Source: a bacterium
Lineage (GTDB): Bacteria > B130-G9
NCBI GenBank assembly: GCA_035527515.1
Contig: DATLAJ010000015.1
Span: 1-43,018, forward strand
DNA length: 43,018 nucleotides
Direction of reading: 5' to 3'
Shown: in pieces, positions 221-11,805 of the stretch
Layout: every line of letters starts with the position of its first letter
How positions within the stretch are numbered: position 1 is the stretch's first letter
Made by a program: the position numbers and the translations under genes
Notes under the pieces: generated by a model
Told to the model about the DNA's origin: nothing
What the model saw: the letters and a program-made list of their open reading frames with translations, nothing else
Databases searched by the model: none

Positions 221-3200
221 CTACATCGGTTTTAGCGGGCTGATCTCCATCCTGGCGAACGCCGGTTGGGGCGAAGTAAGTTTACCCAGGAGATTCGAGA
301 TATAGGTGTCCCTATTATCCCTCTGGAACAGGACATTGCGCTCCTCGAGCTCGGATTTGGTCAGGCCCCACCATTTGATGATGTTGTATGGCGTGCTTGC
401 TATGATGAAGGAGCTGAGTATTACGTGCGGATCGGCGAGCTGGGGCTGTTCCTTCAGACGTTTGACCGTCTTGTAGAACGCGATCTTGGGATCATTGGGG
501 CCCTCAAGATTGCGCAGTCCTTTGGGGTCAATGAAGGCTATGTGTTGCTTGTCGCCATTGACAAGCCACATGATGAAATCGGGATGGAAATTGCCCGCCT
601 CAAAGAAACCTATCCCCCTCCCGCGGCTCATGTTACGCAGGAGATAGAGCTCCTTGCCTTCAAAGAACTCTCGCTTCGCGTTGCAGAACTTGCGCAGGTC
701 GAGGACGAAATCCCTCTCACCCTCGTTCTGAAGGACTACGGGTCTGACCTCAACCAGGCCACCCGTTACATAGACCAAGGGCTCGTAGAGGTGGTTGCTG
801 AACGTGATTACCGAAAGGCCCTGGAATTCGAGTTCGCGCAGATGGCCTTGCTCAATATAACCCTTCAATTCCAGAAGCTTCTCAACGATGTCCTGTCTCG
901 ACTGCTCAACGAGAAACCGGTATTGCTCTATGAAGTTGGGGTCGTCCTCGCTCAGTTCGATGTACTCCAGGTGCTTGCTCTCCCACTCCTGTCTGCAAAG
1001 CTTGTAGTAGCGATCGCAGTATTTCTTGAGCAATGTTGTCGCGATCTCCTGCCACCGTCGAATCCTGTCGAAGTCCGTAAACTCAAGCTCCTCGGCGGGG
1101 ATGTAGAGCTGATACCAGGACGGGTCCTCGAGCAGAACTTTGAGGCTTTCCATTCGGAGATTTAGGTTGAACCAGGTCTTCTCATTCTTGTAGCGCTGAA
1201 GCTCAAAGAAGATCTCCTCGAGGTTCATAAACGCTGTGTGCTTCCGGGAAAAGGATGCCTCATTCTTCTTGGCGAGCTCGAGAGGCTGGCGGATGCGTTT
1301 ACTGGCCATTGCCTGAACTTTGGGATACCAATCAAGAAAAACTCTGCATCTATTCGCGCCGTTATCAGAAAGACCAAGGGTTGGCTTCGGCCCGTCTCTC
1401 TTGAAGTCGAGCTCCTTTGGAAGGCGGATCATCTTCAGCCTCTTCGTGCCGAGGTTCTTTATCACCGGGAGGATTATCTCGTCTCTCTGATCCTCAGTCG
1501 GTAGCCCCTCTTCCTCGAGATACTCCTTGAACTGTTTCATGTAGTTCGCTCGAATGCCAAAGATGTTTAGTGTCTCGAGGAGCTCAGTATGGCGAGGCGC
1601 TTTCAAGCCGGGCACCTGACTGCTCCGCTTCAGCGTGAGGTTGTGGCCCTTGAGTCGAACTCCGCGACCGAAGAGCTGTATGATCTCAACGCCCTTCTTC
1701 CTGCCGACATTCATGAGGCCCATGGTGCTGACTCGCCAGCTGTTCCAGCCCTCAGTGAACTTTCTGGAGCCGATGAGCACCTTGATCGTGGAATCTCCCT
1801 CATTGAGCGAGTGGAATAGAGAACCCGAGAACTCCTGTGACTGGACTACGAGCTCCGTGTGGTCCTCACAGAGCTTGCAGAGCTTAGGCGCGTCCCCCAC
1901 GTAGATTAAGCCGAATGGCTCGTTGTCTCCCACCCGGACTGCGATCTCGCCGCCGGTGCCCTTCAGGTTCTCGATATGTATCGAGCCGGCGGAGCTCGCA
2001 TTGAAGAGAACCTTTAGGACGTCATTGTAGAGGTCCTGCGGTGACGTGTTGAGCGAGTATAGGTAAGTGAACACGTTTGAGAAGGTATCCGTGCCATGCC
2101 TGTCAAGAATGCCTGAGCGGCCCTGAAGGAGCTGTCCGAGGTACTCCTCAACCTGCTCTCGGTGCCTGACGAAGTATGAGAGGAATAGCAGGATATCCAG
2201 GACATCAGAGACATCCCGGCCACTTTCTTTGCTGACGGCGTTGACGCTGTGCCCCACAAAGACCCACAACGGGCGTTCAAGTAGGAATGGGCGCAGCTCA
2301 TGCTTCCTGTCCGCATAGAGCTTCTGCTGCTGATAAAAGGCCAGCAGGCTTGCCGTCAGATACCTCAGCCTTATCGCCTCGTCGGAGTCGTCCGCGAGGT
2401 TGAGGATGCGGTATTCCTTGCCGTAGCCATCGCGGTAGAAAAACTTGTAGGAGTAATCCAAGATGATGCACTTCGCATATAGCTGCTCTAAGTTCTCCTG
2501 ACGATGCTTGCCGACCGCCTGGCCGAACGTGGCTGAATACTCAAACGAGAAGCCGTGCGCGCAGAGGCTTCTTCTCATGGTCATCCAATGGCCGAGGTCG
2601 GTGCTGCTGGCCCCGCTGTGGCCCTCGTCAACAAGCACCAAGTTGTTGCCCTCGAAGCTCTCGACCGCCACCGTCTTCGGGCCAGTTTCCTCTTTCAGTT
2701 TGTGGATGTCGATGATCTCCACGTCCCTTCCGCCGAAGAGGCGACCGCCTTCTTTGGCGAAGAGCTCGGCTTTGATTCCCGAGAGCCCGAATTCCGCAAG
2801 ATGCTGTCGTGAAAGGCCCTCATTGGGTGTCAGGAGTATCGTCATGTTGAGGCTTTTCTCCTGACCGTGCAGTCTCAGATAGTGCCTGTATTGGAGGATG
2901 TTAATATGCATCAAAAGCGTCTTGCCGGAGCCCGTCGCACACCACAATGCTACCTTATTCAGGTCCTCGGGATTGTAGGGCTTCACCCTGTCGCCTCTGG
3001 CCCGATCAGCGTTAAGCACCTCGGCCTGCGCGTTCAAATCTGCGAGCAATGACGAGGGGTCTGAAAAGAACCGGTCGAGATATATCTCCGTGAAAAGCAA
3101 GGCCAAGTATTGGAAGTATTTGGGATAGAGGATGTGCCCCTTCCGGTTGCGCTTCTCAGTTATCTGCTTCCAGTGGCGGACGATGTTCTGGTCATATCGG

Positions 3201-3505
3201 AGAAGCAGGTCCGCCGATAAGTGCTCGCGCTCAAATATCCGGGCTTGAAGGGCCTGGCAGTAGTAGGAGACGTTGTCCTCATTGAAGCCCAGGGATGCTT
3301 GTTTAAGAAGGTCTGCGAGCTTCTGGAAGGAATCGACCTCGAACAGGCTCAGCATCCACTGGAAAAGGACGAGCTTGTCCTCGAACCTGACTCTCGGACG
3401 AGCGGGCCGGCGGCCGCGTCGCCGTGCGGTCCCAGGCGTTGGCGAGAGCGTTAGAGGCGTAGTTGGTTCAGGTGTGGTCATGTCAGTGGGCGCCAGACGG
3501 CTCAC
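221..3505 (-). CDS. res: Type III restriction enzyme, Res (helicase-nuclease) subunit
   Basis: This is the ATP-dependent restriction subunit of a type III-like R-M system. Such subunits translocate or slide along DNA and cut only when complexed with Mod. In 1094 residues one sees an SF2 helicase core with Walker A ATGSGKT (about 190-196), a DEGH Walker B box (about 293-296), the SAT motif (about 324-326) and a C-terminal helicase half ending in [13 protein letters not shown]-terminal PD-(D/E)XK nuclease follows, with PDF near 975 and DPKG near 993. The start is a GTG whose first bases overlap the mod stop (GTGA), so translation is probably coupled. An in-frame ATG nine codons later (3481) is an alternative. 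It is the last gene of the island operon, and the first 40 residues are Pro/Arg-rich and probably disordered. The family call is secure; the recognition sequence cannot be read from here. Confidence 0.93.
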
Positions 3506-10964: not shown

Positions 10965-11722
10965 GCCGCAGGTGCTTTCTTGGCAGACTCCCCATTTATA
11001 TATGCCACGAGGGCAAATTCGTGTTACGCGACCTTGACGGTCAGGAACCGAGAAGGAACGCCTCGGCGCCTTCAGCTTCGTGCACAATACGTCGCGATGG
11101 CCCGTCTTGGGTTTAGGGATTGAAACACAAGTCTGCGGCTGAATCAAGAACCGGCAGTATGTTACGGTATTCTCCGCTCGATGGCGCAGATACAAGCCTC
11201 GGCATGCCGGTGTGATATTTGCAGGCTCAAAGATCAGATGGTCGGGTAAATCCAGCTCATTGAGGTTTGCTCTGTTCGGGCTTATCGGCGCCACGCCAAC
11301 TAGAGTGCGAGAAGACCTGGATTCGGAGTGCAAATTCGAGGGGATGCGGTGAGCGGGATGTCCGATCCGAGAAATTGCGCCAGACGCCCGTAGAGACGTT
11401 TCGCCCCTTATGTGATGTCTGATACTACTCTGATAGTCAGAAGCCCGCACAACTCCGTTTCGCCCTGCCCTTGGGGTTCCGTGGTGTTCATTCTTGCCTA
11501 AGACCAAGGTCAGTGTGCCGCTATTGTGCCGTTCTTGAGTGCAATCCTGCTTTGGTAGCCTTGCCCTGAACGATACACATAACTTCGCCGACACTTCACA
11601 TCAACCCCAATCTTTGTGCCGCTATTGTGCCGTTTACCTGAGCATCACAATGTAACAACAAGGCTAAACAGGGAAAGTAGGTCTTGAGAGAGTTTTCCGC
11701 GCTCAATCGCCGGAAAGCGGCT
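10965..11722. other. Gene-poor spacer between helicase gene and tRNA-Ser
   Basis: About 760 bases with no supportable gene. The helicase frame stays open up to 11594 on the minus strand, but the translation is not recognisable and has no ribosome site. The spacer probably carries the helicase promoter. It contains the direct repeats listed separately and may be an island boundary next to the tRNA 3' end. I see no integrase remnant and no copy of the tRNA 3' end here. Confidence 0.55.
11514..11634. repeat. Pair of 20-bp direct repeats, each made of two TGTGCCG units
   Basis: The same 20 bases occur at 11514-11533 and 11615-11634, 101 bases apart. Each copy is TGTGCCG-CTAT-TGTGCCG followed by TT, so the heptamer occurs four times in two pairs with 11-base spacing, about one helical turn. 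The cluster starts about 90 bases from the 3' end of tRNA-Ser. Iterated short sites next to a tRNA end resemble arm-type integrase sites or a regulator array; neither is proven. Confidence 0.7.
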
Positions 11723-11805
11723 CGGAGGGGGTAGGATTCGAACCCACGGACCTTTCGGTCTGCGGTTTTCAAGACCGCCGCCTTCGACCTCTCGGCCACC
11801 CCTCC
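11723..11805 (-). tRNA. tRNA-Ser (anticodon TGA)
   Basis: Read on the minus strand, the 83 bases fold as a class II tRNA. The acceptor pairs GGAGGGG with CCCCTCC, followed by discriminator G. The D arm is bounded by GCC and GGC, and the anticodon stem GCGGT/ACCGC holds loop CTTGAAA. The long variable arm is GACC-GAAA-GGTC, and the T arm contains GTTCGAATC. The long variable arm and TGA anticodon identify serine (UCA and related codons). CCA is not encoded. The 3' end faces the restriction island, the usual orientation for tRNA-targeted integration. Confidence 0.96.

What the first reader, a model, noticed from the sequence alone, without database searches (positions are those of the whole stretch)
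221..11805. Type III-like restriction operon with an SNF2 helicase and an embedded HigB / HigA-ImmA module beside tRNA-Ser
The order is SNF2 helicase, higB, higA-immA, mod, res, all in one direction, with 1-4 base overlaps from higB to res. SNF2 genes next to large Mod/Res pairs are known, but here a complete toxin-antitoxin pair with a protease fusion sits between them and is translationally tied to mod. The module could act as a guard: loss of the operon, or protease-triggered loss of HigA during infection, would free HigB. It could also simply regulate Mod/Res. This is the best candidate for an undescribed composite defence system in the window.
Basis: partly seen in the sequence, partly recalled or inferred. 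Interest (0 to 1): 0.68.

Follow-up and report, generated by a model that had tools for sequence, protein, structure and literature searches.

The report
Toxin cassette inside a restriction operon
A bacterial DNA-cutting (restriction) operon next to a tRNA gene carries, between two of its genes, a complete growth-stopping toxin with its antitoxin and its own control switch; relatives in many phyla carry other toxins or suicide modules in the same gap, so this looks like one example of a swappable backup defence.

Summary
SNF2 helicase, HigB, HigA-ImmA, Mod and Res lie in one direction next to tRNA-Ser; all five frames are intact and their motifs present. The family calls hold: RapA/DrmD-like SNF2, a type III-like Mod and Res of about 1,000 aa, a true HigB fold, and an HTH plus M78-peptidase antitoxin related to PD-λ-2B.

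Comparison explains it. SNF2–Mod–Res is a conserved three-gene operon found across many phyla. It has two cargo slots: SNF2/Mod is filled in 16 of 71 loci, Mod/Res in 35 of 105. Identified cargo is mostly toxin, abortive-infection or nuclease modules: HigBA, MazF-like, Fic, Abi_2, PIN, GmrSD, YhcG, HEPN–MNT, Schlafen, CBASS, AAA+DUF4276. HigB/HigA-ImmA fills slot A in the window and in one other genome; relatives also sit in front of a different type III Mod, an HsdS and other RM-like genes.

New here: the embedded pair keeps its own operator, TTTACC-N5-GGTAAA, shared by HigB relatives across phyla and unique in this genome.

Most likely it is a self-regulated backup (PrrC-like) module, with HigA-ImmA perhaps also setting mod–res transcription. 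That function is inferred. Embedding of toxins in RM operons is already known, so this is a new variant of a known kind.

The parts
8085..10964 (-). SNF2-family helicase, 959 aa (ORF open to 11594; likely start ATG 10964)
   Evidence: Pfam SNF2-rel_dom 4.8e-37 and Helicase_C; best NCBIfam match DISARM DrmD_b, 681 bits, below its 950 cut-off; RapA is the nearest solved structure; start inferred from relatives of 956-963 aa
8040..8056 (-). Operator-like palindrome TTTACCTATTAGGTAAT, 16 nt before the HigB start, in the 61-bp SNF2/HigB gap
   Evidence: Perfect 7+1+7 inverted repeat; same motif TTTACC-N5-GGTAAA at >=10/12 upstream of 36/56 HigB relatives against 0/56 control regions and 0.5% of shuffles; only site in the 3.47-Mb genome
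7688..8023 (-). HigB toxin, 111 aa, RelE/HigB fold, invariant H57, R76 and C-terminal H111
   Evidence: PDB profile match to P. vulgaris HigB 5.8e-9; AlphaFold pLDDT 94, Foldseek best hits HigB on the 70S ribosome 1.7e-4; alignment A3
6570..7688 (-). HigA antitoxin HTH fused to an ImmA/IrrE (M78) metallopeptidase domain, 372 aa
   Evidence: TIGR02607 HigA 64 bits against cut-off 47.7; Peptidase_M78 1e-8; PADLOC PD-Lambda-2_B 1e-41; fold hits HigA-DNA complexes, CapP and PprI-ssDNA
3502..6573 (-). Mod: type III-like N6/N4 DNA methyltransferase, 1023 aa; ATGA overlap with higA-immA
   Evidence: PADLOC MTase_III 5e-297; PDB EcoP15I Mod and Mbo45V; single full copy in the genome
221..3505 (-). Res: ResIII helicase with C-terminal PD-(D/E)xK nuclease motif, 1094 aa; GTGA overlap with mod
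   Evidence: PADLOC REase_III 1.4e-232; motifs intact, PDF..DPK-like motif in 76/96 relatives; single copy
11723..11805 (-). tRNA-Ser(TGA), likely integration site
   Evidence: ARAGORN; 55 bp of its 3' part duplicated exactly on contig C167 next to a phage integrase
11514..11631 (-). Two copies (at 11514 and 11615) of the sequence GGCACAATAGCGGCACA (minus strand) that overlaps the 3' end of the integrase gene beside the duplicated tRNA end on C167

Best explanation
A horizontally acquired SNF2-Mod-Res restriction operon carries a HigB/HigA-ImmA (PD-lambda-2-like) cassette in its SNF2/Mod slot, as one of many interchangeable backup modules. Shown: the anatomy, the conserved three-gene core, two cargo slots filled mainly by toxin/abortive/nuclease modules, recurrence of this cassette in the same slot in one other genome, and a conserved operator directly before higB. 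Inferred: HigA-ImmA neutralises HigB and represses the internal promoter that reads higB-higA-immA-mod-res. Phage-caused DNA damage or counter-defence triggers the peptidase domain (as ssDNA does in CapH/CapP and DdrO/PprI). Loss of HigA then frees HigB to cleave mRNA on ribosomes and raises mod-res expression. Restriction is the first line and translation arrest the second, working like PrrC in a type I operon.
For: Core conserved across phyla: 53 of 80 genome loci found by Mod have SNF2 upstream and 75 have Res downstream; the SNF2 and Mod searches of one 386-genome set largely find the same operons. Slots filled in 16/71 and 35/105 loci, 86 of 87 cargo genes on the operon strand. Cargo domains. 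Same cassette, slot and direction in L019; relatives before a different type III Mod (L115), HsdS, and before RM-like genes judged from sequence only (L177, L193). Operator conserved and genome-unique. HigA-ImmA model resembles CapP and ssDNA-bound PprI. Precedents: PrrC/HEPN in RM operons, DarTG2 inside a type I RM, ssDNA-activated CapH+CapP control of defence operons, PD-lambda-2 as phage defence.
Against: Only two operons of this family have HigBA in the slot, and their cores are related (SNF2 tree support 90), so they may descend from one insertion. Most close HigBA relatives stand alone and need no RM. PD-lambda-2 needs a third gene (PD-lambda-2C) for defence, absent here, and its B protein rather than A was toxic when overexpressed, so toxin polarity is uncertain. 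No consensus sigma-70 promoter was found in the gap. No functional data.
Confidence: 0.5

Rival explanations
1. Independent addiction or defence cassette: HigB/HigA-ImmA moved into the operon, keeps its own promoter and operator, and stabilises the island or gives its own phage defence, with no biochemical or regulatory tie to Mod/Res.
For: Most relatives are stand-alone on plasmids, prophages and chromosomes. The cassette carries its own operator. Slot content changes between close operons (HigBA, GmrSD, empty). HigBA GC (0.49-0.51) is lower than Mod/Res (0.55), and its GC3 (0.60) differs from Mod/Res (0.72-0.73) though not from SNF2 (0.60).
Against: All slot A cargo is co-directional (26/26), and here higA and mod overlap by ATGA, so mod translation and transcription are tied to the cassette. 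Insertion before RM-like genes recurs in several families.
Confidence: 0.3
2. Controller only: HigA-ImmA acts like the C protein of type II RM systems, timing mod-res expression by repressing an internal promoter and releasing it on DNA damage; HigB is a minor corepressor or addiction partner.
For: Operator just upstream, ATGA coupling to mod; HigA fold also resembles C.BclI weakly; CapH/CapP-type regulators precede many defence operons.
Against: SNF2 lies upstream of the operator and would escape this control. Operons without HigBA manage without it, and cargo in other loci are mostly toxins or nucleases rather than regulators. HigB conserved residues are kept.
Confidence: 0.14
3. Chance passenger: a mobile TA pair that happened to land in the gap, with no selection for the position.
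For: HigB/HigA-ImmA is mobile and widespread (9% of 386 genomes).
Against: With 38 such genes in 386 genomes, only about 0.002 insertions are expected at 70 such junctions (my estimate, assuming about 3,100 genes per genome), yet a second one exists. The slot is repeatedly filled by functionally similar modules.
Confidence: 0.06

Closest known systems
PD-lambda-2 (Vassallo et al. 2022, PMC9519451)
   Same: HigB-like gene followed by HTH-peptidase fusion; HigA-ImmA matches PADLOC PD-Lambda-2_B at 1e-41
   Different: No third component (P4-antitoxin-like PD-lambda-2C, required for defence); HigB does not reach any PADLOC model; here the pair is embedded in an RM operon
PrrC inside a type Ic RM operon; HEPN toxins in RM operons (PMC3710099)
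   Same: A translation-targeting toxin encoded inside the RM gene block as second line of defence
   Different: HigB is a ribosome-dependent mRNase of a TA pair with its own antitoxin and operator, not an anticodon nuclease held by the RM complex; host RM is type III-like with SNF2
DarTG2 embedded in a type I RM, with RptR (PMC12255303)
   Same: Complete TA pair between genes of a restriction system, in a repressor-controlled island
   Different: Different toxin, RM type and repressor; in the window the antitoxin itself is the likely repressor
CapH/CapP and DdrO/PprI controllers (PMC13373217, PMC10904395)
   Same: HTH repressor acting with an M78-like metallopeptidase, next to defence or damage-response genes; model matches CapP 7t5t and PprI-ssDNA 8sln
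   Different: Here both domains are in one protein that is also a HigA antitoxin; ssDNA activation untested
Type III restriction-modification (EcoP15I-like)
   Same: Mod-Res pair, Res with ResIII helicase and PD-(D/E)xK motifs
   Different: Mod is about 1,020 aa against 567-644 aa for the solved type III Mods and best matches its own PADLOC model; a dedicated SNF2 helicase gene precedes it
DISARM class 1 (DrmD)
   Same: SNF2 helicase nearest to DrmD_b
   Different: Below the DrmD cut-off; no DISARM partner protein among the operon's genes

Membership tests
HigBA toxin-antitoxin | HigB fold and conserved active-site residues | tested here: met
HigBA toxin-antitoxin | HigA HTH antitoxin downstream of toxin | tested here: met
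   TIGR02607 above cut-off; order
HigBA toxin-antitoxin | Autoregulatory operator upstream of higB | tested here: met
   Conserved palindrome, similar to P. aeruginosa HigA TTAAC/GTTAA half-sites; sequence only, binding itself not tested
HigBA toxin-antitoxin | Toxicity of HigB, neutralised by HigA | not testable with these tools
   Needs expression assay
PD-lambda-2 | B component: HTH-M78 fusion | tested here: met
   PDLC03982 1e-41
PD-lambda-2 | C component (P4-antitoxin-like), required for defence | tested here: not met
   Next gene is mod with ATGA overlap; therefore not filed as PD-lambda-2
Type III RM | Mod with DPPY and SAM motifs, homologous to EcoP15I Mod | tested here: met
Type III RM | Res with helicase motifs and PD-(D/E)xK, adjacent to Mod | tested here: met
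Type III RM | One-strand methylation and cutting between two inversely oriented sites | not testable with these tools
   Needs SMRT methylome and cleavage assay
DISARM | DrmD plus DrmA, DrmB, DrmC and a DrmM methylase | tested here: not met
   SNF2 681 bits against cut-off 950; none of the other four operon proteins has a listed DISARM match
Embedded defence (module inside another defence operon) | Cargo between core genes that occur together without it elsewhere | tested here: met
   Klebsiella, Priestia and many genomes have SNF2-Mod-Res without cargo
PrrC-like guard of RM | Toxin released when the RM enzyme is inhibited | not testable with these tools
   Analogy only

The most novel reading that the evidence does not exclude
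HigA-ImmA is at once antitoxin, transcriptional controller of mod-res and damage-sensing protease: one protein whose self-cleavage simultaneously raises restriction and frees HigB. SNF2-Mod-Res would then be a general chassis whose two slots accept interchangeable fail-safe modules across many phyla.
Probability: 0.25. Interest if true: 0.75.

Novelty: new variant of a known kind. Interest (0 to 1): 0.52.

Why it matters
It shows one conserved restriction chassis with two defined slots whose cargo turns over among mostly toxin, abortive-infection and nuclease modules. That gives a natural set of swaps for testing whether restriction systems are 'guarded'. The conserved HigA operator inside the operon gives a concrete, cheap test of whether an antitoxin-protease controls a restriction enzyme. 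The slots are also a discovery tool: several cargo proteins matched no Pfam family.

Tried and rejected
DISARM and Hma membership were rejected on the SNF2 scores and lack of partners in the operon. PD-λ-2 membership was rejected for lack of the C gene. Chance insertion is unlikely. A sigma-70 consensus scan was uninformative: 5 promoter-like sites against 5.5 expected, none in the gap. Single insertion versus two insertions in window and L019 could not be settled: SNF2 groups them (support 90), while Mod N-terminus and Res do not; the whole-Mod tree separates them, perhaps because the target-recognition region is mosaic. First-pass L019 looked operator-less because the ORF start was called 27 nt too early; the corrected start shows an 11/12 operator. 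The key preprint on embedded defences (10.1101/2024.01.29.577857) was not held; it is cited only through PMC12255303 and PMC12629846.
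Full report
WHAT IS THERE. Five intact genes run in one direction (minus strand) from just beyond tRNA-Ser: SNF2, higB, higA-immA, mod, res. HigB/HigA, HigA/Mod and Mod/Res overlap by 1, 4 and 4 bases; SNF2 and HigB are separated by 61 bp. The SNF2 ORF is open back to 11594, but relatives of 956-963 aa point to ATG 10964. Mod and Res are single full-length copies in the 3.47-Mb genome. 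The window begins at the contig end just after res, so genes further downstream are unknown.

FAMILIES. The helicase is SNF2/RapA-like, nearest to DISARM DrmD but below its cut-off. Mod is a 1023-aa type III-like methylase and Res a ResIII helicase with a PD-(D/E)xK motif. HigB is real: the profile finds P. vulgaris HigB in the PDB at 5.8e-9, and the AlphaFold model (pLDDT 94) best matches HigB bound to the 70S ribosome. In 20 relatives H57, R76 and the C-terminal H111 are invariant. HigA-ImmA has a HigA HTH above the NCBIfam cut-off and an M78 domain with HEAAH…EDEAN. Its model matches HigA structures, some bound to DNA, and also CapP and ssDNA-bound PprI. PADLOC places it with PD-λ-2B (1e-41).

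THE HOST OPERON. One scan of 84,980 species genomes with a Mod alignment, cut at the best 80 loci, gave SNF2 upstream in 53 and Res downstream in 75, from many phyla. Plasmids of Klebsiella, Aeromonas, Priestia and others carry the same trio. In 386 genomes chosen as relatives (nearly all from other families), Mod (E<=1e-90) occurs in 15 and SNF2 (E<=1e-150) in 14, and the best hits lie together. So SNF2–Mod–Res is the unit; HigBA is extra.

CARGO SLOTS. With plasmid, viral and extra genome loci included and duplicates removed, the SNF2/Mod slot is filled in 16 of 71 loci and the Mod/Res slot in 35 of 105. Of 87 cargo genes, 86 point the same way as the operon (my ORF picker favours the operon strand slightly, so this is a mild overestimate). 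Pfam and PADLOC identify: HigB+HigA-ImmA (window, L019), GmrSD (L017, L060), Abi_2 (L072, L074), Fic (L080), PemK/MazF (L090), zeta-like AAA (L093), PIN (L060), YhcG (L066, L068) with an N-terminal-only DUF1016 relative (L065), HNH (L070), KilA-N and RhuM (L075), Schlafen-like (L032, L054, L081), MNT+HepT (L096; L052 by similarity), CBASS cyclase+Cap15 (L014), and AAA+DUF4276, matching PADLOC HEC-01A/B, in about ten loci (one member, from L008, scanned; the others by similarity). A few are not obviously toxic (RecD-like helicase in L010, a kinase-like protein in L086, a 23S-rRNA-intervening-sequence protein in L056), and several have no Pfam match. Within the closest operon group (window, L017, L019, L048; core 59-67% identical to the window) slot A holds HigBA, GmrSD, HigBA and nothing, so cargo turns over while the core stays.

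HOW SPECIAL IS HIGBA THERE. HigA-ImmA relatives (E<=1e-40) occur in 36 of 386 genomes. Only two, the window's and that of L019, have one beside this Mod. L019 has the same order SNF2–HigB–HigA-ImmA–Mod and in addition a pair similar to AAA+DUF4276 before Res. In L059 and L061 a HigBA pair lies on the opposite strand upstream of the same Mod family. Most relatives stand alone on plasmids, viral contigs and chromosomes. Some stand directly in front of RM genes of other kinds: a 628-aa type III Mod with Res (L115), an annotated HsdS (L165), and proteins that read as HsdR-like (L193) and as an adenine-specific RM protein (L177). The last two are my reading of the sequence, not a family search. One descent or two for window and L019 could not be decided.

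THE OPERATOR. The 61-bp gap holds TTACCTA-T-TAGGTAA, 16-17 nt before the HigB start. The motif TTTACC-N5-GGTAAA reaches at least 10 of 12 positions upstream of 36 of 56 HigB relatives (54 distinct), against 0 of 56 matched control regions and 0.5% of shuffles. L019, L115, L059 and L061 have 11-12 of 12. It is the only such site (up to 2 mismatches) in the window's genome. The half-sites resemble the TTAAC/GTTAA palindrome bound by P. aeruginosa HigA (PMC6987408). The motif was first seen in these same sequences before it was counted, and the control region is coding sequence, so the comparison is somewhat generous; the shuffles keep base composition. Consequence: the embedded pair carries its own regulatory site, and a promoter there would drive higB–higA-immA–mod–res but not SNF2. 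A sigma-70 consensus scan did not find that promoter.

ISLAND SETTING. Fifty-five bases of the tRNA-Ser 3' part are duplicated exactly on contig C167, where no tRNA is predicted, about 65 bp beyond the end of a phage-type integrase gene, with a primase-like gene further on. The sequence overlapping that integrase's 3' end occurs twice between tRNA-Ser and SNF2. This is what repeated integration at tRNA-Ser would leave. The contigs are not joined, so the element's extent is unproved.

MECHANISM. Shown: anatomy, intact motifs, chassis with cargo slots, conserved operator. Established elsewhere: HigB-family toxins cut mRNA on ribosomes; PD-λ-2 gives abortive defence but needs a third gene, and its B protein was the toxic one; CapP and PprI peptidases act on HTH repressors and respond to ssDNA; PrrC is unleashed when its RM host is inhibited. 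Inferred: HigA-ImmA holds HigB and represses the internal promoter; damage or counter-defence triggers loss of HigA, freeing HigB and raising mod–res.

NOVELTY. Embedding of toxins or defence modules in RM and BREX operons is documented (PMC3710099, PMC12255303, PMC12629846, PMC12839542; the dedicated preprint was not available to me). I found no paper in the library describing HigB/HigA-ImmA inside SNF2–Mod–Res, or this pair of cargo slots; the searches covered open-access full text only. Verdict: new variant of a known kind, of moderate interest, with cheap decisive tests.

Noticed in passing
G000 contig C167:39908-39962 and 40028-41110 (L248:909-963 and 1029-2111): Exact 55-bp copy of the tRNA-Ser 3' part beside a tyrosine integrase, with a primase-like gene further on and a YhcG (DUF1016) gene on the other side: likely second attachment site of an island at the window's tRNA-Ser.
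   Followed up: partly
window 11514 and 11615: Two copies of the integrase-3'-end sequence between tRNA-Ser and SNF2, suggesting successive integrations at the same tRNA.
   Followed up: partly
L014 (Rhodothermus marinus plasmid NC_015970.1) 10561-12014: A CBASS pair (cyclase plus Cap15) sits between Mod and Res of the same Mod family.
   Followed up: partly
L115 (IMGVR_UViG_3300010885_079891) 3487-15915: UvrD/GajB-like helicase, TmtA-like protein, HigB, HigA-ImmA, type III Mod and Res in a row on a contig classed as viral.
   Followed up: partly
L008, L019, L029, L033, L042, L048, L066, L093, L095 (Mod/Res slot): AAA ATPase plus DUF4276 (PADLOC HEC-01A/B) is the most frequent cargo of the Mod/Res slot, across phyla.
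   Followed up: partly
L021:8272-9096, L009:7402-7998, L058:9462-9989, L060:7060-9498, L091:5088-5969: Slot cargo proteins without any Pfam match: candidates for unknown defence or toxin families.
   Followed up: no
Mod trees: Whole-Mod tree disagrees with SNF2, Res and Mod N-terminus trees; target-recognition regions may be swapped between operons.
   Followed up: no
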